From the NCBI RefSeq assembly GCF_004564275.1, contig NZ_SPDV01000045.1, forward strand, positions 1 to 44,541: 44,541 nt of DNA. Direction: 5' to 3'. The position numbers and the translations under genes were made by a program. The DNA is from Sphingomonas parva (ex Maeng et al. 2020). Lineage in GTDB: Bacteria; Pseudomonadota; Alphaproteobacteria; Sphingomonadales; Sphingomonadaceae. A model generated the notes under the pieces. The model was not told where the DNA came from. It did not search any database and worked only from the letters and a program-made list of their open reading frames with translations. Within the stretch, counting starts at the first letter, position 1. The number at the start of each line of letters is the position of its first letter. This document shows positions 1-22,721 of this stretch, piece by piece.

Positions 1-519
1 GCCGACACGGACCCGCCACGCCGTCGGGGACGGCCGGCAGACCGGATCGGTGACGCGCCGGCGCCCGCCCTGTCGCTCCCTCGATCGCCACCGGTCGAGG
101 CGGCGACGCGGCGGTCCGAACAGGATCTGCGCGCCGATGCAGCCCGGCCCGTCCCCCCGGCTGCGGTCCCGCCGATCGTCCGCGACGCTGCGCCGCGCCC
201 GACGTCGCCGGCGGCGGTGCCGCAAGCCCCGCCTTTGGTTGTGCCGGTGGCGCCCGCGGCGGCTGCCGCGACGCGCCCGGCTGCGCCAGCCGCAGCCCCG
301 CCGGCCGCCAACCCACCGGTCCTCGCAGCGCCGCAGGTGATACTTCCCGAGCCCGTTGCGGACCGGCCGCCGCTGCCCGACGTGCAGATCAGCATCGGCC
401 GGGTCGAGATCCGCGCCGCCGCCGCGCCGCCGCGGCCGGCGCCGCGCGAGGCGCGCAGCGAAAACGCGCCGCTCAGCCTCGACGCCTATCTCTCCCGGCG
501 GAACGGGCGGGCACGATGA
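1..519 (+). CDS. eCIS-associated Pro/Ala-rich protein, C-terminal part (5' end outside window)
   Basis: The frame is open from base 1 to the TGA at 517-519, giving 172 visible residues; the start lies upstream. Most of the visible part is Pro/Ala/Arg-rich and looks disordered. The last 55 residues are more ordered, with a beta-strand-like stretch (VQISIGRVEIRA), a Pro-rich linker and the ending LSLDAYLSRR. From memory, this pattern of a short 'I.IGR.E.RA' strand plus 'LSLD.YL' tail recurs in small proteins just before the DUF4255 gene of eCIS clusters. The stop overlaps the next start as ATGA, so it is probably in the same operon. Function unknown; a structural accessory or assembly role is inferred from position only. 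Confidence 0.7.
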   Translation, partial: ADTDPPRRRGRPADRIGDAPAPALSLPRSPPVEAATRRSEQDLRADAARPVPPAAVPPIVRDAAPRPTSPAAVPQAPPLVVPVAPAAAAATRPAAPAAAPPAANPPVLAAPQVILPEPVADRPPLPDVQISIGRVEIRAAAAPPRPAPREARSENAPLSLDAYLSRRNGRAR

Positions 520-1784
520 GCAACCATCTCGCCATCGCCACCGTCACCGCGGCGCTCGGCCAGATCGCCCAGGCGGCCGCCGCCAGCGCCGTTTCCGGGG
601 TTCAGCTCCGCTTCGGCCGTCCGCCGGCGACCGATACGGCGACACGCCAGGTCAACGTCTTCCTCTATCACCTGATGCCGCACGCCGGCCTGCGCAACGC
701 CGACCTCGCGATGCGCGGCGCCGACGGCGCTTTGGTCAACCGCCCCCGCGCGGCGCTCAGCCTCCATTATCTGATCAGCTTCTACGGTACCGACAGCGAT
801 CTCGAGCCCGATCGCATGGCGGCCGCGGTGGCGCGCGACCTCCACGCCCGCCCCCGTCTCACCGACCAGGTGATCGCCGATGCGATCGCGAGCAACAGCG
901 CGATCCTCGGCGAGTCCGATCTCGCCGACTCCTTCGAGCGCGTCACCTTCACCCCGAGCGCGGACTCGCTCGACGAGATGTCGAGATTGTGGTCGGTGAT
1001 GGTGCAGACGCCCTATGCGCTGTCGCTGCGCTACGAGGCCTCGGTGGTGCTGATCGACGCGCTGGAGAGCGCCGGGCCGGTGCTGCCGGTGCTCAACCGC
1101 GGCCCCGACGATCGCGGCCCGGAGACGCTGGCGGCGGTCGGGCCGACGATCGAAGGCCTGTGGATCGGCCTCGCCGCGACCGACGACGGGCCGCCGCGCT
1201 TCCCGAGCCTGCGCGCCGCGCATCCGGGCGCGAAGCTGCGATTCTCGGGCTCCGGCTTCGGCGGCGATTCGGTGCGCCTCGAATTCCGCAACCTGAGGCG
1301 GGACATCGGCGAGGATCTGGTGCCGGTGGCGAGCGGCTCTGGCGAGCTTCGGGCGACGCTGCCCGATGGCGCTCCCGATCAGGCGCTGTGGGCACCCGGC
1401 ATCTACGGCGTGACGGCGGTGGTGACGCGCGCCGGCCGGGAAATCCGCTCGCCGGCCTGGCCGATGCCGCTCGCGGTGCGGGTCACCGCGATCGCGCCGC
1501 AGCCGCTGGCGTCGGGCAGCGGCATGGTGACGCTCAATTTCACCTGCCGGCCGCATGTCCTGCCGGAGCAGATCGCGATCCTGCTGCTTTCGGGGCAGGA
1601 GATCCCCGCCGAGGATCGTGTGGCGGCGGGGCCCACGCTCGCGTTCCGCGTCGACAGCGACAGCGTCGCCGACGGCGACCTCGCGATCGTCCGGGTCGAC
1701 GGCGCCGACAGCCAGCCGTTCGTCATCGATTCCGTCACCGGCCGGCTCACCTTCGACGACAGCCAGAGGATCACCGTCGCATGA
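516..1784 (+). CDS. Pvc16-like tail terminator/cap protein (DUF4255 family)
   Basis: The 422-aa product has an N-terminal DUF4255 domain (about residues 1-190), with the family's pattern 'VNVFLYHLMPHAGLRNADL' followed by 'LSLHYLISFYG'. In Photorhabdus PVC and Serratia Afp, the DUF4255 protein Pvc16/Afp16 caps the tube and sheath at the distal end and sets particle completion. The C-terminal 200 residues are beta-rich and resemble Ig/IPT-like modules (FSGSGFGGDSVRLEF), as in longer members of this family. The start ATG overlaps the previous stop (ATGA), and the stop overlaps the ATPase start in the same way, so Pvc16 and Pvc15 are translated in tandem. Family assignment is strong; the cap role is by homology. 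Confidence 0.9.
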   Translation: MSNHLAIATVTAALGQIAQAAAASAVSGVQLRFGRPPATDTATRQVNVFLYHLMPHAGLRNADLAMRGADGALVNRPRAALSLHYLISFYGTDSDLEPDRMAAAVARDLHARPRLTDQVIADAIASNSAILGESDLADSFERVTFTPSADSLDEMSRLWSVMVQTPYALSLRYEASVVLIDALESAGPVLPVLNRGPDDRGPETLAAVGPTIEGLWIGLAATDDGPPRFPSLRAAHPGAKLRFSGSGFGGDSVRLEFRNLRRDIGEDLVPVASGSGELRATLPDGAPDQALWAPGIYGVTAVVTRAGREIRSPAWPMPLAVRVTAIAPQPLASGSGMVTLNFTCRPHVLPEQIAILLLSGQEIPAEDRVAAGPTLAFRVDSDSVADGDLAIVRVDGADSQPFVIDSVTGRLTFDDSQRITVA

Positions 1785-3901
1785 GCGAAGAGATCGACCT
1801 CTGGCTCGACCGCAACAACGCCTATCTCGCGGCGGCGCTGGCGCATTTGCGGGCGCTGCTGCGCGCGGCGATCGGCCCGGATGCCGGGACGCCGCAGGCG
1901 CCGACCGGCACCGCTTTGGCCGAGACCGGGCGCGACGACGACGCGGCGGGCAGCTGGCCGGGGTTCAACCTGTTCCGCAGACCCGCGGCAGCCGACGCCG
2001 CGGCGCCGGTGCTGCTGCTTCCCGGGCCGGACGGCACCGATCCGGCCGCGGTCGCCGCTGCCGCCGAACGGCTCGCCGAAGCCAGCGCGGGCGATCCGCC
2101 GCCCGCCCTGCTGATGCTCGCCGGACGGTTCGAGCTCTCCGACTTCGAGCGCGACATCCTGCTGCTGTGCCTCGCCGCCGAGCTCGATCCGGGGATCCCC
2201 GCGTCCTACGCCGCGGTGCAGGGCAGCCCGGGCCGGGCGAGCCCGAGCTTCGCGCTGGCGATGACGCTGTTCGACCATGCCGCCTGGGACGCGCTCTCGC
2301 CGGAGCGGCCGTTGCGCTACTGGCGGCTGATCGACATCAACCAGCCGGGGGCGACGCCGCTCACCACCGCCGCGCTGCGCATCGACGAGCGGATCGCGAA
2401 TTTCGCCAAGGGCCTCAACCATCTCGACGGCCGGATCGCGGCGCTGCTCGAGCCGATGCCGGCGGTGATCCCCGAGGCGCTGGCGCCGTCGCATCGGGTG
2501 CGGATCGCCGAAATCGAGCGGCTGGCGCGGGCGACGGCGCCGGCGCGGATCGCGCTGGTCGGCCCCGACCGGGTCAGCAAGCGGCGCCTCGCCGCGGCCG
2601 CCGCGGCGGCGCTCGGCCTGCCCTGCTACCGGCTGCCGGCCGAGGCGATCCCGACCGGCGCCGAGCTCGACAGCTTCCTGCGGCTGTGGCTGCGGGAATC
2701 GCTGCTGCTGCCGTTCGCGCTGCATCTCGACGGGCACGACCTTCCGGCCACCGCCGAGCAGAATGTGCGGCGGCTGGTGCGCCGCGCCGGCGGCCTTTTG
2801 TTCGTCGATCTGCGCGACGGCCTTTCGGGGCTGGAGATCGATTCCCGCGTCGACGTCGCCCGGCCGACCGCCCTCGAGCAGCGTGCCGAATGGGAGAACC
2901 AGCTCGGCGAGCGGCCCGACAGCGCGGCGACCGCGGCGCGGCTCTCCAGCCATTTCGACCTCGACTTCGCGGACATCGCCGCCGTGGTGCGGGAAGCCGA
3001 CGCCGGCGCCGAGGACGTGCCGCCCGAGGAACGGCTGTGGCGCAGCAGCGTGACGCGCGGCCGGCCGTCGCTGGCGCAGCTTGCCCAGCGCATCGAGGTG
3101 AAGCCGAGCTGCCGCGACATCGTCCTGCCCGAGGGCGAGATGGCCTTGCTCGACCACATCGCGGCGCAGGTGCGCGAGCGCGCCAAAGTGTATGACGACT
3201 GGGGCTTCCGCGAGCGGATGAACCGCGGTCTCGGCGTCAGCGCGCTGTTCGCCGGCGACAGCGGCACCGGCAAGACCATGGCGGCGGAGATGCTCGCCGA
3301 CCGGCTGAGCCTCGATCTCTACCGCATCGATCTCTCGGCGGTGGTCAGCAAATATATCGGCGAGACCGAGAAGAACCTGCGCGACGTGTTCGACGGCGCG
3401 GAGACCGGCGGGGCGATCCTGTTCTTCGACGAGGCCGACGCGCTGTTCGGCAAGCGCAGCGACGTCAAGGACAGCCACGATCGCTACGCCAATATCGAGA
3501 TCGACTATCTGCTGCAGCGCATGGAGGCCTTTGCCGGCCTGGCGATCCTCGCCACCAACATGAAGAGCGCGCTCGATCCGGCCTTCGTCCGGCGGCTGCG
3601 CTTCATCGTCAATTTCCCCTACCCCGGCCCGGGCGAACGGCGGCGCATCTGGCAGCATGCCTTCCCGCCGGGCGTGCCGCTGCGCGGCGTCGATTTCGAG
3701 CGGCTGGCGCAGCTCGACCTGACCGGCGGCAACATCCACGGCATCGCGATCAACGCCGCCTTCATGGCGGCGGCGGCCGGCACGCCGGTGACGATGGACC
3801 TGCTGCTCGACGCGTGCCGCATCGAGCTGCGCAAGCTCGACCGCCCGGTCAACGAGGCGGACTTCCGGCGCATCCGCGCCGTCGCGGGAGACAGAAGATG
3901 A
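1781..3901 (+). CDS. Pvc15-like AAA+ ATPase
   Basis: The protein is 706 aa from the ATG at 1781. The same frame stays open well upstream, but that part only shadows the DUF4255 gene, and the ATGA overlap fixes the start. The C-terminal AAA+ domain has Walker A GDSGTGKT (Lys498), Walker B ILFFDEAD (Asp550, Glu551), a sensor-1-like LATN and an arginine-finger-like FVRRLRF. The N-terminal 400 residues match the helical domain found in eCIS ATPases (ELSDFERDILLLCLAAELDP). In PVC/Afp systems Pvc15 is needed for assembly or cargo loading but is not part of the finished particle, so it acts in the cytoplasm. It sits between the cap gene and the cargo region, which fits a loading or remodelling role. 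Confidence 0.93.
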   Translation: MSEEIDLWLDRNNAYLAAALAHLRALLRAAIGPDAGTPQAPTGTALAETGRDDDAAGSWPGFNLFRRPAAADAAAPVLLLPGPDGTDPAAVAAAAERLAEASAGDPPPALLMLAGRFELSDFERDILLLCLAAELDPGIPASYAAVQGSPGRASPSFALAMTLFDHAAWDALSPERPLRYWRLIDINQPGATPLTTAALRIDERIANFAKGLNHLDGRIAALLEPMPAVIPEALAPSHRVRIAEIERLARATAPARIALVGPDRVSKRRLAAAAAAALGLPCYRLPAEAIPTGAELDSFLRLWLRESLLLPFALHLDGHDLPATAEQNVRRLVRRAGGLLFVDLRDGLSGLEIDSRVDVARPTALEQRAEWENQLGERPDSAATAARLSSHFDLDFADIAAVVREADAGAEDVPPEERLWRSSVTRGRPSLAQLAQRIEVKPSCRDIVLPEGEMALLDHIAAQVRERAKVYDDWGFRERMNRGLGVSALFAGDSGTGKTMAAEMLADRLSLDLYRIDLSAVVSKYIGETEKNLRDVFDGAETGGAILFFDEADALFGKRSDVKDSHDRYANIEIDYLLQRMEAFAGLAILATNMKSALDPAFVRRLRFIVNFPYPGPGERRRIWQHAFPPGVPLRGVDFERLAQLDLTGGNIHGIAINAAFMAAAAGTPVTMDLLLDACRIELRKLDRPVNEADFRRIRAVAGDRR

Positions 3902-4167
3902 CCCTGCGCCTGCACATCGATCGGCTGGTGGTCGATGCCGGGCTCGGCGCCGCCGCGGCCGACGGCCCGCGCCTGCGCGCCGCGCTGGAGGCCGAGCTGG
4001 CGCGGCTGCTGGCCGAGGAAGACGCCGGCTGGGCGCCGTCGGAGGCCTGGCGGGTGCAGGCGGCTGCCCGATTTGTCCCGCGCGGCGGCGACGTTGAGGC
4101 GATGGGCGCGGAGATCGCGGGCACGCTCCACGCCTGCCTGCACCAGCGACAAGGAGAGATGCCATGA
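3898..4167 (+). CDS. Small eCIS-cluster protein of unknown function
   Basis: An 89-aa acidic, Ala/Leu-rich protein starting LRLHIDRLVVDAG, with a predicted helix in the middle (LEAELARLLAEE) and a short C-terminal helix. The start ATG overlaps the ATPase stop (ATGA), and the stop overlaps the first DUF4157 gene in the same way. I recall short proteins with the pattern 'I.RLV.dG......aleaEL.rLLae' at this place in other eCIS clusters, but no function. Its position just before the cargo gene would suit a loading factor or chaperone; that is inference. The longer open frame starting at 3814 is rejected because it would overlap the ATPase deeply. Confidence 0.75.
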   Translation: MTLRLHIDRLVVDAGLGAAAADGPRLRAALEAELARLLAEEDAGWAPSEAWRVQAAARFVPRGGDVEAMGAEIAGTLHACLHQRQGEMP

Positions 4168-5279
4168 CGCGGCTTTCCGTCGAGAGGGCTCCCGCACTCA
4201 CGCCCGCCCCGGTCGTAGTCAACCGCCGGTGCACCGCCTGCGGTAACGAAAGCACGCAGGCGGAATGCCCCGAATGCGCCGGCGAGGATCGCGACCCCGA
4301 ACAGCTCGACGAGCAGGAATTCTCCGTTTCCCCTTGTGGCGGGCCGAGCAAGGACGTCGCGCCGGGCATCGTTCACGACGTCATCGAGGGAGCGGGCGCG
4401 CCGCTGACGGCGCGGGAGCGAAGCTTCTTCGAGCCGCGCCTCGGGCACGATTTCAGCCGCGTCCGCGTCCATTCCGACATGCGCGCAGCCGAGGCGGCCC
4501 GCGCCGTCGATGCCGATGCCTTCACCGTGGGTCGTCACGTCGTGCTGGGCGGCCGCCATCGCGACGGACTCGCCCGACACAATGTGCTCGCGCACGAACT
4601 GGCGCATGTCGTCCAGCAGTCCGGCGGCGCGGCCCCGCCGCGGGGCGAGCTGAGGATCGCTGCGCCGGATCACGCGACCGAGCGCGAAGCCGACGCCGTG
4701 GCTCATGCGGTCGCGCGCGCTGTCCCGGCCGCGCCCCACGAACGCAGCGACCAGCAGGTCGCGCGCCAGAGCGGCGGAGGACTGGTGCCGTCCAGTTGCC
4801 CGTGCTGCATCACCGGCCTGTCGATCGCCAACATCACCCGCATCGATAACGCCACGCACATGGGCCACAGCTTCGACCTGCAGATCGCGATGGACCGCCC
4901 GTCGAGCGGCCCCGCCGGCGAATGCGTGCTGGAGTGGTGGGAGAAGACCGACGTCCCCGCGATCCCGGGACATCCGCCAAACACATGGACGGACATGTTC
5001 GCGAACTTCCCGACGTCGCCGACATTCGCTCCGTGGCACAACCGCGGAACGACCTGCTCGAGCAGCCAGGGAGTCACCATCAACGACCCGCCGTCGCTCG
5101 GCAAACGTGCAGGGCGCACCGTTACCCGCACGCTCGAGTTCCGCCTGGTCGTCAACAGCATGCCCGCCTCGTCCGACAGCGGCTGCGCCGAAGCATCGAA
5201 GCAGGTCACCGCCAAGCAGGTCCTGGTGATGACCAGCGGTACGCCCGACTGGACCGCAAGCTCGTTCACCACGCCATGA
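4164..5279 (+). CDS. DUF4157 (eCIS core domain) protein, putative cargo 1
   Basis: The 371-aa protein starts with a zinc-ribbon-like pair of CxxC motifs (Cys23, Cys26, Cys35, Cys38). A DUF4157 domain follows at about residues 71-155, containing HELAH (144-148) and then EREAD (173-177), the arrangement of a metallopeptidase-like fold. Residues 205-371 form a separate beta-rich domain that opens with SCPCC and has more cysteines, aromatic residues and no signal peptide. DUF4157 is the domain most often linked to eCIS cargo, and similar N-terminal regions are thought to target effectors to the particle. The C-terminal part is therefore the likely effector; I do not recognise its activity. It is translationally coupled to the preceding gene. 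Whether the HExxH motif is catalytic cannot be told from sequence. Confidence 0.88.
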   Translation: MTRLSVERAPALTPAPVVVNRRCTACGNESTQAECPECAGEDRDPEQLDEQEFSVSPCGGPSKDVAPGIVHDVIEGAGAPLTARERSFFEPRLGHDFSRVRVHSDMRAAEAARAVDADAFTVGRHVVLGGRHRDGLARHNVLAHELAHVVQQSGGAAPPRGELRIAAPDHATEREADAVAHAVARAVPAAPHERSDQQVARQSGGGLVPSSCPCCITGLSIANITRIDNATHMGHSFDLQIAMDRPSSGPAGECVLEWWEKTDVPAIPGHPPNTWTDMFANFPTSPTFAPWHNRGTTCSSSQGVTINDPPSLGKRAGRTVTRTLEFRLVVNSMPASSDSGCAEASKQVTAKQVLVMTSGTPDWTASSFTTP

Positions 5280-5289
5280 GGAGGGCATC

Positions 5290-5790
5290 GTGACCGGTTC
5301 CGGCGACCCTCTGCTCGACTGGCTGTTCGCCCGTCCCGGCCAGGACCGGCCGGGCCCCGCCGGCGATTGCTTCACCGACGAGGCGGAGTGGCTCGCCGCG
5401 GGCCGTTCGCTGCCCGATACAGGTGGGCGGCTGGCGTCCTTGCTGCGCGAGCATCCCGATCCGGTGACACGGAGCGCCGCCGCACTGGCGCTGGGTCTGC
5501 TCGGCGAAACGGATGCCCGCCGGGAATTGATCGAAGCGCTCTCCGACGCACCGCTGGTGGCGATGGAGGCGGCGGCGGCCCTGGCCGCGGTCGGCGACCG
5601 CGAAGCGGTCGAGCCGCTCTGCGCGGCGCTGCGCAGCGCCAGCGCCAATGTGCGCGCCAACGCGGTCGCCGCGCTCGGCCGGATCGGCGGCCGCAGGGCC
5701 GAAGACTGTATCGAGATGGTGATTGCCGATCCCGATCCGATGGTGCGCGCGGCGGCGGCCGACGCGCGAGGAAGGAGCCCGAACCGATGA
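5290..5790 (+). CDS. HEAT-repeat protein between the two DUF4157 genes
   Basis: A 166-aa protein made of short helical repeats with the HEAT/PBS-lyase pattern, for example 'VTRSAAALALGLLGETDA', 'AAAALAAVGDREAVEPL' and 'NVRANAVAALGRIGG'. There are about four repeats from residue 50 to the end. The start is GTG at 5290, preceded by GAGGAGGG at 5278-5285. The stop overlaps the second DUF4157 start (ATGA). HEAT repeats mediate protein-protein contacts, so a chaperone, adaptor or antidote for the neighbouring cargo is plausible. This is inference from position. It has no signal peptide or membrane segment and should be cytoplasmic. Confidence 0.85.
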   Translation: MTGSGDPLLDWLFARPGQDRPGPAGDCFTDEAEWLAAGRSLPDTGGRLASLLREHPDPVTRSAAALALGLLGETDARRELIEALSDAPLVAMEAAAALAAVGDREAVEPLCAALRSASANVRANAVAALGRIGGRRAEDCIEMVIADPDPMVRAAAADARGRSPNR

Positions 5791-6884
5791 AACACCATGC
5801 TCCGCGCATGGCCGGTCGCCCGATGGCGGCGCTGTCCGGCGAGAAGAAGAAAAAGGGCTGCGGCTGCGGCACCTGCCCCGCTTGCGCCGCGGCGAAAGCC
5901 GCCGAGGCGCAGGGGATGGAGGAGCTTGGCCACGCCGAGACGCACGGCGGCGCGGGGGTCGCCGATCTGGCCGGCGTGCCGGTCCATGGCGGGGGCGCCG
6001 TCGGCGGCGCCTTTGCGCTCGGCATGGGCGCGGGGCGCGAGGCGCGCAGCGGCGAGGCGCCGGGCGGCAACGTCGCCCGAGATCTCGCCCGCATCCTCGG
6101 TCGCGCCAAGGATGCGGGCGGCGAGGCGGAGGGCCGGGCGCCCGGCACGCTGCCGCTCCACCCGCCATCGCGCGGCCCCCTCGACGTCAGCCATCCTGCC
6201 GACGCCGCCGAGCAGGAAGCCGAGCGGATCGTCGAGGCGCTCTACCCCCACGGCGGCTCGAGCGGGACGCGCGAGCGGTCGCCCGAGCCGAAGGCGCGCT
6301 CCGCCGGCGCGACCTATCGCCGCGGCGTGTTCGGCGGGCTCGCCGAGGGCGGCATGGCGCTGCCGGAGGAGATACGCAGTGAGATGGAAGGCGCGCTCGG
6401 CGCCGATCTCTCCGGGGTGCGCGTCCACACCGATGCCAACGCCGCGGCGCTCAGCGAGAGCCTCGGCGCCACCGCTTTCACCTATGGCAGCGACATCTTC
6501 TTCGACAGCGGCCAGTTCGCCCCGGGCACCCACGAGGGCGATCGCCTGCTGGCGCACGAGCTGAGCCACGCCATCCAGCAACAGAACAGCGGGCCGACCA
6601 TCGCCCGCGAGGGCGAGCAGAAGACGACGCTGCAATGCGTCAACGAGAATCTGTCGAGCGCCGGCGTCGCCGCCTGGGTACTGGCCATCGTCGGCACGAC
6701 CTGCGGCCTGATCGGCGCGATCGCGGGGAGCCCGACCGGGCCCGGCGCGGCGGGCACGGCGGCGCTGGCGGCGGCGACCTGCATCGCCGGCGTGGTCGGC
6801 TTCTCGGTCGGCTTCGTGCTCGGGATCATCACCGGCTGCGCGCAGGATCCCAACTTCCGCAGTGCGGGCGCGAACCCGCGATGA
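5787..6884 (+). CDS. DUF4157 protein with C-terminal membrane hairpin, putative cargo 2
   Basis: The ATG at 5787 overlaps the HEAT-repeat stop and gives 365 aa; longer forms would run through the HEAT gene. Residues 20-35 hold a Lys stretch and a Cys cluster (KKKKGCGCGTCPAC; Cys25, 27, 30, 33). Residues 36-180 are Gly/Ala/Glu-rich and low complexity. DUF4157 lies at about 187-268 with HELSH at 257-261. Two hydrophobic, glycine-rich segments follow at about 294-314 and 321-350, the second rich in small residues (GVVGFSVGFVLGIITG). No signal peptide is present. A soluble targeting domain joined to a membrane-inserting tail fits an eCIS cargo that acts on target membranes, for example a pore former. 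The domain call is strong; the activity is inferred. Confidence 0.87.
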   Translation: MKHHAPRMAGRPMAALSGEKKKKGCGCGTCPACAAAKAAEAQGMEELGHAETHGGAGVADLAGVPVHGGGAVGGAFALGMGAGREARSGEAPGGNVARDLARILGRAKDAGGEAEGRAPGTLPLHPPSRGPLDVSHPADAAEQEAERIVEALYPHGGSSGTRERSPEPKARSAGATYRRGVFGGLAEGGMALPEEIRSEMEGALGADLSGVRVHTDANAAALSESLGATAFTYGSDIFFDSGQFAPGTHEGDRLLAHELSHAIQQQNSGPTIAREGEQKTTLQCVNENLSSAGVAAWVLAIVGTTCGLIGAIAGSPTGPGAAGTAALAAATCIAGVVGFSVGFVLGIITGCAQDPNFRSAGANPR

Positions 6885-6905: not shown

Positions 6906-7067
6906 ATGAAGCCGCTGTACCTGTGGATCGTCGCGACGCTGCTCCTCGCGGTGCTGCTCGTCGTGCAGCTCTCGCGCAGCGGCAATTCGAGCATCTGGTA
7001 TTACGCGCTCGGCGCGCTCGTGCTGGCGGTGGTGATCGGCTTCTTCGTCGCCCGGCGGCCGGGATGA
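6906..7067 (+). CDS. 53-aa two-helix membrane protein
   Basis: This short gene encodes MKPLYLWIVATLLL..., with predicted membrane helices at about residues 4-20 and 31-49 joined by a polar loop (SRSGNSSIWYY) and ending in the basic tail ARRPG. An AAGGAG sequence at 6893-6898 lies 7 bases before the ATG. It follows cargo 2 by 21 bases, precedes the Pvc7-like gene by 7 bases, and shares the strand and base composition of the operon, so it is probably real. It could protect the producer's membrane from cargo 2, anchor the machine, or help release. None of these can be told apart from the sequence. Confidence 0.7.
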   Translation: MKPLYLWIVATLLLAVLLVVQLSRSGNSSIWYYALGALVLAVVIGFFVARRPG

Positions 7068-21548: not shown

Positions 21549-22721
21549 CTAGCGAGCAAGCGTCGGTAGCCGATAGCGCGCGAGGACGTTGTTCGGCTGC
21601 GTCTGCACCGTGCCGCGCCCGCCGGCGCGCGCGACCGCTTCCACGTCCTCGCGCTGGGCGCTCTCCAGCCGCTGCATGCGCGGCGCGTCGGGGGCGAAGG
21701 CATAGGGCGGGACCAGCCCCATCAGCAGCATGTAATTGGCGCAGGCATGCTGGGCGCCGGCTTCCTGGAACCATTCCAGGCCGAAGATCGGGTGCTCGAG
21801 CTTGATGAACTTGCCGGGCAGCGGCGCGATGGCGCTGGGCACCGCCACATAAGGATAATCGAGGGCGTCCAGCGCCAGGCACGTCGTTGCCGCCCAGCTC
21901 GCGACCACTGGGTCGAGATACCAGAGGCCGTAGACGTCGGGGATCGCGCCGACCTCCCACCACGCCATCGGAACGACGTCCATCGGGTTGACGTAGATCT
22001 GGCGCAGCGGACAGGCGGCGGCGAGATCGTCGACGAAGCCCTGGTTGCCCGCGGTCGGTCCGGCAAAGGTGATCGGGGTCAGCCAGGCGGCCTTGGCGGG
22101 CGGCAGGTTCGCGACCAGCCAGGGCGCCAGCATCGATGCGATGCACCCGCCGAGGCTGTGGCCGGTGACGAGGATGATCGGCTCGTGGCCGTCGACCTGC
22201 GGCAGTGCACAGAGATAGTCGAGGACCGTCTGCCCTCCCCATGTCAGCCCGGTCACGGTCCGGAAGGCGGAGCGGCTGCCGTTCGCCACCCAGGCGTCGG
22301 GATCGTCCTGCCACTGGTCCTGCGGGATCGGCGTGGCGTCCTCGTACAGATCCTCGAGCAGGCCCTTCACGTCCGGATCGGCGGTCCCGCGGTTGACCAG
22401 GGCGACGGCGAACGGCGAGGTTCCAGCCGGCGCGTCGGGGCTGCCGGCGAACAGGCCGGCGACGTAGAGCAGATTGCCGTCGTCGCCGTCCACCACCGGT
22501 CCCCAGACGCAGCGCCAGTAGCTGTCGTTGACCGGCGGGAAGACCTTGTCCGGATCGGCGACGTCGCCGGGAATATCGGTGATCGGCTCGTCATATGCGA
22601 AATAGGACAGTTGAACCATGGCGGTGGCGACCGCGCTCGTCGCCGTCGCAGCGGGCGCGTCGGGGGACCGAACCGCCTCCAGGCCGCCGACCAATTCGTC
22701 GATGCGCTGCGTCATCGTCAT
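21549..22721 (-). CDS. Class 3 lipase-like alpha/beta hydrolase
   Basis: A 390-aa protein from the ATG at 22721, which has GGAGG 5 bases upstream; an in-frame extension to 22883 lacks a good start. The nucleophile elbow GHSLGG (Ser189) follows a strand (PIILVTGHSLGG), and 'ITFAGPTAGNQGF' sits where lipase_3 proteins have their conserved GxP block. The catalytic Asp is probably in NPMDVVP at about residue 260; the His is less certain. There is no signal peptide, so it is either cytoplasmic or exported by another route. It lies beside, but opposite to, the eCIS operon. Lipases occur as eCIS or T6SS effectors, but no DUF4157 or other targeting domain is visible here, so that link is speculative. 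Confidence 0.8.
   Translation of the reverse strand: MTMTQRIDELVGGLEAVRSPDAPAATATSAVATAMVQLSYFAYDEPITDIPGDVADPDKVFPPVNDSYWRCVWGPVVDGDDGNLLYVAGLFAGSPDAPAGTSPFAVALVNRGTADPDVKGLLEDLYEDATPIPQDQWQDDPDAWVANGSRSAFRTVTGLTWGGQTVLDYLCALPQVDGHEPIILVTGHSLGGCIASMLAPWLVANLPPAKAAWLTPITFAGPTAGNQGFVDDLAAACPLRQIYVNPMDVVPMAWWEVGAIPDVYGLWYLDPVVASWAATTCLALDALDYPYVAVPSAIAPLPGKFIKLEHPIFGLEWFQEAGAQHACANYMLLMGLVPPYAFAPDAPRMQRLESAQREDVEAVARAGGRGTVQTQPNNVLARYRLPTLAR

What the first reader, a model, noticed from the sequence alone, without database searches (positions are those of the whole stretch)
4164..6884. Two DUF4157 cargo candidates flank a HEAT-repeat protein
Both carry the HExxH DUF4157 domain but have unrelated C-terminal parts. 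The HEAT-repeat gene between them is coupled to the second cargo. This suggests a cargo cassette with a shared loading domain, variable effector ends and a possible dedicated adaptor or antidote.
Basis: partly seen in the sequence, partly recalled or inferred. Interest (0 to 1): 0.7.

Follow-up and report, generated by a model that had tools for sequence, protein, structure and literature searches.

The report
Two-module payload slot in injection operon
A bacterial syringe-like injection operon has a replaceable payload slot that here holds two probable payload proteins of a known kind, and a small HEAT-repeat binding protein that appears to have come in with the first payload and may be its antidote or escort.

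Summary
In detail: 4164-5279 and 5787-6884 encode DUF4157 (eCIS_core) proteins with unrelated C-termini, and 5290-5790 encodes a HEAT-repeat protein. They lie in an eCIS operon between the AAA ATPase and the first LysM-type gene. That position is a swap slot: 61 of 81 complete slots hold one to four DUF4157 genes, and 27 of 28 slots with several have unrelated payload ends. Shared domain plus variable ends is already published. The HEAT gene is the unusual part: none was detected in 85 comparison slots (moderate sensitivity). A same-family genome has the second cargo's C-terminus (87% identical) and a small two-helix neighbour without HEAT or first cargo, and the 4-base overlap called coupling occurs at 9 of 16 operon junctions. 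Within the operon cargo 1 and HEAT alone have strongly deviant codon usage. Best reading: two separately acquired modules, cargo 1+HEAT and cargo 2+TM53; HEAT most likely binds cargo 1 as antidote, less likely as loading escort. That is inference: the cargo 1 end has no convincing relative and no structure could be computed.

The parts
1781..3901 (+). AAA ATPase (Pvc15/Afp15-like position), upstream edge of the payload slot
   Evidence: Walker A-like GDSGTGKT in the translation; homologous gene precedes the slot in relatives. The family name is recalled; this protein was not run against Pfam.
3898..4167 (+). small conserved slot-leader gene (called g90 here, 89 aa), unknown function
   Evidence: phmmer hits in 31 of the 90 loci then held, E below 0.01; no Pfam family above cut-off
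4164..5279 (+). cargo 1: N-terminal Cys cluster, DUF4157 (aa 80-155), C-terminal end without a convincing relative (aa 201-371)
   Evidence: PF13699 84 bits; codon usage z -6.3 against the operon's structural genes
5290..5790 (+). HEAT-repeat protein, 166 aa, GTG start with GGAGG upstream
   Evidence: HEAT_2 72 bits; nearest solved structures are mostly alphaRep binding scaffolds; codon usage z -5.1
5787..6884 (+). cargo 2: Cys cluster, long linker, DUF4157 (aa 191-267), C-terminal end with two hydrophobic segments
   Evidence: PF13699 106 bits; C-terminal 85 aa 87% identical in L135; hydropathy
6906..7067 (+). TM53: 53-aa protein with two hydrophobic segments, candidate partner of cargo 2
   Evidence: same-sized two-segment gene at the same place in L135, 33% identical; 2 of 5000 plain and 31 of 5000 segment-preserving shuffles reach the score
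7075..7722 (+). first LysM-type/baseplate-region gene (LysMa; label recalled), downstream edge of the slot
   Evidence: anchor for the related loci; nucleotide identity to Sphingomonas gei resumes exactly here

Best explanation
The region between the AAA ATPase and LysMa is a replaceable payload slot of an eCIS. In this genome it holds two modules that arrived separately. Cargo 2+TM53 is the older resident: a DUF4157 carrier with a two-helix, probably membrane-inserting end, next to a small two-helix membrane protein that may protect the producer. Cargo 1+HEAT is a later insertion between the slot-leader gene and cargo 2. The AAA ATPase loads both DUF4157 proteins. The HEAT protein stays in the producer and binds cargo 1, most likely its C-terminal end, keeping it harmless until delivery. 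Shown: gene content, slot position and swapping, HEAT not detected in other slots, cargo 2's end with a two-helix neighbour but without HEAT in one relative, the codon-usage grouping. Inferred: loading by the ATPase, payload toxicity, the order of arrival, binding of HEAT to cargo 1, the antidote role, pore formation and protection by TM53.
For: Slot swap: identity to Sphingomonas gei is 82% from 248 to 3935 and 81% from 7075 on, with no nucleotide match between. L135 has leader, cargo 2-like gene, 53-aa two-helix gene, LysMa, with no HEAT and no cargo 1. The cargo 2 end is the best conserved of seven segments compared with L135: 87%, against 60% for DUF4157, 42% for the N-terminus, 73% each for LysMa and gp5, 50% for the leader, 33% for TM53. 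Of 17 operon genes cargo 1 (z -6.3) and HEAT (z -5.1) depart strongly in codon usage; cargo 2 is -1.6, TM53 +0.8. Among 49 non-DUF4157 proteins from slots and incomplete slots, Pfam finds toxin-like domains and one Imm11 immunity domain. HEAT repeats and two-TM proteins are both listed among immunity proteins, and a two-TM pore-forming toxin is listed with this metallopeptidase (PMC3482391, passages). Pvc15 loads payloads in Photorhabdus (PMC11495950, passages including the abstract).
Against: No second example of cargo 1+HEAT was found, so recurrent pairing, the usual proof, is missing. Cargo 2+TM53 rests on one relative, and TM53 is only 33% identical there. TM-type ends mostly lack such a neighbour: 19 of 81 slots have a DUF4157 protein with a hydrophobic segment in its end, and only 3 of these 19 (window, L135, L052) also have a called non-DUF4157 slot gene with one. 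A notable proportion of these systems lack immunity genes (PMC3482391). Codon usage: 3 of 19 downstream gene calls of the window also have z of -5 or below, and the 12 reference genes are themselves part of the operon. HEAT repeats are generic binding scaffolds.
Confidence: 0.4

Rival explanations
1. HEAT is a loading escort (chaperone or adaptor) for cargo 1: it holds the payload or hands it to the AAA ATPase, with no antidote role.
For: The slot lies directly after the ATPase gene; HEAT resembles alphaRep binding scaffolds; codon usage groups it with cargo 1.
Against: 60 of 80 other complete slots carry DUF4157 genes and no HEAT was detected in them, so such payloads do not need one in general; the passages read on Pvc15 loading mention no such adaptor.
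Confidence: 0.24
2. HEAT is itself a payload: a small binding-repeat effector injected alongside the two cargos.
For: It lies in the payload slot, and non-DUF4157 genes with toxin-like domains occur in other loci there; about half of predicted eCIS toxins lack DUF4157 (PMC11297309, passages).
Against: No toxin or enzymatic domain, only HEAT repeats; no DUF4157; no Cys cluster in its sequence as read.
Confidence: 0.15
3. HEAT is the partner of cargo 2.
For: 4-base overlap with cargo 2.
Against: 9 of 16 operon junctions have the same overlap; cargo 2's end recurs in L135 without HEAT; codon usage separates HEAT from cargo 2.
Confidence: 0.08
4. HEAT is a passenger without functional tie to either payload.
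For: Detected in this slot only, of 86; slots take up varied genes, such as a PIN gene in a Nostoc slot and Uma2 genes in 2 of 49 proteins scanned.
Against: Intact frame, a good ribosome-binding site and tight packing in the operon.
Confidence: 0.13

Closest known systems
PVC-metallopeptidase (DUF4157, PF13699 eCIS_core) payloads of eCIS
   Same: Constant DUF4157 with intact HExxH, unrelated C-terminal ends, several per locus, in an eCIS operon
   Different: The two C-terminal ends match no Pfam or NCBIfam family; a HEAT gene lies between them
Imm-HEAT immunity proteins of polymorphic toxins (PMC3482391)
   Same: HEAT-repeat protein encoded beside a probable toxin
   Different: The published partner is Tox-REase-7; no family match was found in the cargo 1 end, and no recurrence of the pair
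Tox-WTIP pore-forming ends listed with this metallopeptidase (PMC3482391)
   Same: Two hydrophobic, probably membrane-spanning helices at the C-terminus of a DUF4157 protein
   Different: The Wx[ST]IP motif is absent from the cargo 2 end
Imm-CdiI two-helix immunity proteins (PMC3482391)
   Same: Small protein with two hydrophobic helices beside a probable membrane-acting toxin
   Different: No family match above cut-off; no CdiA neighbour
Pvc15 AAA ATPase payload loading (PMC11495950)
   Same: AAA ATPase gene directly upstream of the payload slot
   Different: Loading was shown for Photorhabdus payloads with signal peptides, not for these proteins

Membership tests
DUF4157 / eCIS_core payload | PF13699 domain above the curated cut-off | tested here: met
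   84 and 106 bits against 22
DUF4157 / eCIS_core payload | HExxHxxQ Zn-binding motif | tested here: met
   HELAHVVQ and HELSHAIQ
DUF4157 / eCIS_core payload | encoded in an eCIS operon | tested here: met
   Pvc16_N by Pfam; same gene order in relatives, one annotated with tail protein X, baseplate V, gp25 and baseplate products. Sheath and tube were not seen in the window; they lie upstream in L017 by recalled resemblance.
DUF4157 / eCIS_core payload | variable C-terminal toxin domain | tested here: inconclusive
   ends differ but match no known toxin family
DUF4157 / eCIS_core payload | loaded into the particle and injected | not testable with these tools
   needs purified particles
Imm-HEAT immunity protein | HEAT repeats | tested here: met
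   HEAT_2 72 bits
Imm-HEAT immunity protein | gene next to a toxin gene | tested here: inconclusive
   10 bases after cargo 1 and overlapping cargo 2, but toxicity of either is not shown
Imm-HEAT immunity protein | pairing with the same toxin type recurs | tested here: inconclusive
   no second example of the pair found
Imm-HEAT immunity protein | neutralises the toxin | not testable with these tools
   needs co-expression
Tox-WTIP pore-forming toxin | two membrane-spanning helices | tested here: met
   two hydrophobic segments by a simple hydropathy script in the cargo 2 end
Tox-WTIP pore-forming toxin | Wx[ST]IP motif | tested here: not met
   absent from the end as read
Imm-CdiI | two transmembrane helices | tested here: met
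   TM53, hydropathy script
Imm-CdiI | next to a CdiA C-terminal toxin | tested here: not met
   neighbour is a DUF4157 protein

The most novel reading that the evidence does not exclude
An eCIS payload slot carrying two complete payload/antidote modules of different origin, one guarded by a HEAT-repeat protein and one by a two-helix membrane protein: an antibacterial injection particle armed with two new toxin ends, each with its own protector.
Probability: 0.25. Interest if true: 0.58.

Novelty: new member of a known kind. Interest (0 to 1): 0.36.

Why it matters
How cells making antibacterial eCIS payloads survive is called an intriguing mystery (PMC8213781 discussion, passages), because most of the verified toxins there lack a visible immunity gene. 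If HEAT or TM53 protects, this locus gives two testable candidates, and the slot boundaries (AAA ATPase to LysMa) give a simple place to look for more payloads and protectors across phyla.

Tried and rejected
Rejected: HEAT as a general companion of DUF4157 payloads (detected in 1 of 86 slots). Rejected as evidence: the 4-base overlap (9 of 16 junctions). Tried as a common loading tag: an N-terminal Cys cluster occurs in 12 of 94 DUF4157 proteins, 0 of 48 other slot genes, 0 of 298 other unlabelled genes and 8 of 714 structural genes, all 8 in the second baseplate J gene, so it is not universal. Led nowhere: the cargo 1 end in plasmids, viral contigs and 49 eCIS genomes (one weak hit, E 2.3e-4, in a frame with four stops, not followed); the cargo 2 end in plasmids, viral contigs and 385 class genomes (14 weak hits besides the window, best E 3.5e-4); HEAT in plasmids, viral contigs and 199 same-family genomes (two weak partial hits besides the window); LysMa in viral contigs (none, one locus, L097). 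PHROGs gave only two marginal matches, to TM53 and the leader; PADLOC gave generic HEAT matches. Paper searches gave one paper each, neither read.

Limits. One search kept the best 80 of 448 matching loci, and its pattern list was itself cut off. Some loci are near-duplicates (for example the Ensifer plasmids). Gene calls come from my own codon-score script; the five same-genus loci were checked at open-frame level only. The improved HEAT profile found 12 of 20 control loci, two of these being the window's own gene and several pairs the same protein, so it misses distant HEAT proteins. The Pfam check covered 49 of 74 non-DUF4157 candidates of at least 110 aa, the window's among them and some from incomplete slots; the 25 dropped were on the other strand or in loci where no AAA gene marked the slot. 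Slot proteins under 110 aa were mostly not scanned with Pfam, nor were the DUF4157 proteins as a set; of the loci fetched after five proteins were scanned. The genome-wide HEAT search covered 30 genomes; only 12 of its hit places were fetched and compared with the loci. The count of 61 slots with DUF4157 is a lower bound: in L147 my caller cut the gene and lost a domain seen. In L135 it placed the cargo start too late (174 aa); I used the full 357-aa frame. In one search the ATPase comparison was out of frame and is dropped.
Full report
What is there. The three genes are as described: cargo 1 at 4164-5279, HEAT at 5290-5790 and cargo 2 at 5787-6884. Both cargos carry PF13699 (eCIS_core, formerly DUF4157) well above the cut-off with intact HExxH. 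The block lies inside an eCIS operon: tail terminator (Pvc16_N), AAA ATPase, an 89-aa leader gene, the block, a 53-aa gene with two hydrophobic segments (TM53), LysM-type genes, then baseplate genes. Several structural labels are recalled names; an annotated relative shows the same order with tail protein X, baseplate V, gp25 and baseplate products. The window is contig C45, 1-44541, of a draft genome of 111 contigs. The closest relative found by the LysMa gene is Sphingomonas gei, 95%, so the host is probably a sphingomonad (inference).

The block is a payload slot. Against Sphingomonas gei the operon is 82% identical from 248 to 3935 and 81% from 7075 on, with no nucleotide match between; there the slot is 1.4 kb, with a recognisable leader gene and a 265-aa and a 138-aa gene, and no DUF4157. 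I collected related loci with LysMa as anchor: nine from class and phylum samples, the best 80 of 448 matching genome contigs, one viral contig, eight plasmid records, six further same-family loci and five same-genus loci. In 81 complete slots including the window, DUF4157 genes per slot were 0 in 20, 1 in 32, 2 in 25, 3 in 3 and 4 in 1. In 28 slots with at least two DUF4157 proteins with ends over 40 aa, one (L008) had a homologous pair of ends and 27 had none. The window is typical in this. Shared DUF4157 with variable toxin ends was published in 2012 (PMC3482391, section 13) and again in 2021 and 2024 (PMC8213781, sections 10-11; PMC11297309, passages).

HEAT is the odd gene. By phmmer with the HEAT protein and by a HEAT profile, no gene called in the other 80 complete slots matched. 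The profile detects 12 of 20 control loci, two of them the window's own gene, so this is a moderate test. A Pfam scan of 49 of 74 non-DUF4157 candidate proteins found HEAT only in the window, and five more slot proteins had none. Five same-genus eCIS loci show no HEAT frame either, making none in 85 comparison slots. HEAT-like hits occur in 6 of 30 eCIS genomes searched; the 12 hit places that were fetched do not overlap the eCIS loci, the rest were not compared. The window's own genome has HEAT hits at two other places, on contig C8. Two searches of the paper library for HEAT repeats with contractile injection gave no paper; supplements could not be searched.

Who belongs with whom. In L135, from a same-family genome, the slot holds the leader gene, a 357-aa DUF4157 protein and a 53-aa gene with two hydrophobic segments, then LysMa. 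The C-terminal 85 residues of its DUF4157 protein are 87% identical to cargo 2, with 26 synonymous and 11 non-synonymous codon differences, while the DUF4157 part is 60%, the N-terminus 42%, LysMa 73% and gp5 73% identical. The end is the best conserved of the seven segments compared, as expected of the working part of a payload. The two 53-aa proteins are 33% identical; 2 of 5000 plain and 31 of 5000 segment-preserving shuffles score as high, moderate evidence of kinship helped by equal length and place. Against a general rule of such partners, 19 of 81 slots have a DUF4157 end with a hydrophobic segment and only 3 of the 19 have a called non-DUF4157 slot gene with one. Cargo 1 and HEAT are both missing from L135, so they are best seen as an insertion between leader and cargo 2. 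Codon usage agrees: of 17 operon genes, cargo 1 (z -6.3) and HEAT (z -5.1) depart from the structural genes; the next lowest are the leader (-2.0) and cargo 2 (-1.6). Two cautions: the 12 reference genes are among the 17, and 3 of 19 downstream gene calls also have z of -5 or lower, two of them perhaps false genes. The overlap of HEAT with cargo 2 proves nothing, since 9 of 16 junctions have a 4-base overlap.

Mechanism. The AAA ATPase of the Photorhabdus PVC loads payloads by their N-terminal signal peptides (PMC11495950, passages including the abstract), and the slot follows that gene here, so loading of both cargos by it is inferred. The cargo 2 end has two hydrophobic segments, like the published two-helix pore-forming ends listed with this metallopeptidase (PMC3482391, passages), but lacks the Wx[ST]IP motif; TM53 resembles two-helix immunity proteins in topology only. 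HEAT repeats are listed among immunity proteins in the same paper, there with Tox-REase-7 (passages), and most of the closest solved structures to the HEAT protein are alphaRep binding scaffolds. I therefore favour HEAT as a binding protein for cargo 1, antidote before escort, at 0.40. The same paper says that a notable proportion of these systems lack immunity genes, which counts against. No convincing relative of the cargo 1 end was found and no structure could be computed, so its activity is unknown.

Verdict. A correct observation of a mostly known arrangement. The new elements are one HEAT gene so far seen in this slot only, two payload ends without known family, and a corrected pairing.

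Noticed in passing
L017:8824-9621: The Sphingomonas gei slot holds a 265-aa protein with an N-terminal Cys cluster but no DUF4157; its C-terminal part resembles the ends of DUF4157 proteins in L045 and L023, so payload ends may occur without the DUF4157 carrier.
   Followed up: partly
4164-5279 and 5787-6884; related loci: An N-terminal Cys cluster (C-x1-2-C-x1-12-C-x2-C) occurs in the first 100 residues of 12 of 94 DUF4157 proteins, both window cargos among them.
   Followed up: partly
related loci: The ExEA[DE] motif, a possible third zinc-ligand helix, lies only upstream of HExxH in 35, only downstream in 23, on both sides in 1, and is not found by this simple pattern in 53 of 112 DUF4157 proteins with HExxH. 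Cargo 1 has it downstream, cargo 2 upstream.
   Followed up: no
3898-4167: An 89-aa gene after the AAA ATPase is found by phmmer in 31 loci but matches no Pfam family above cut-off; it may be a conserved slot-leader or loading component.
   Followed up: no
L177:12853-13260 (-): A 135-aa frame with an N-terminal Cys cluster lies directly upstream of a DUF4157 frame in a same-genus slot; a separate small gene or part of the payload gene.
   Followed up: no
21549-22721: A class 3 lipase gene lies on the opposite strand after the end of the eCIS operon.
   Followed up: no
L159:9029-9808: The Nostoc plasmid slot carries a PIN-domain gene and a CIS spike tip gene just before LysMa.
   Followed up: no
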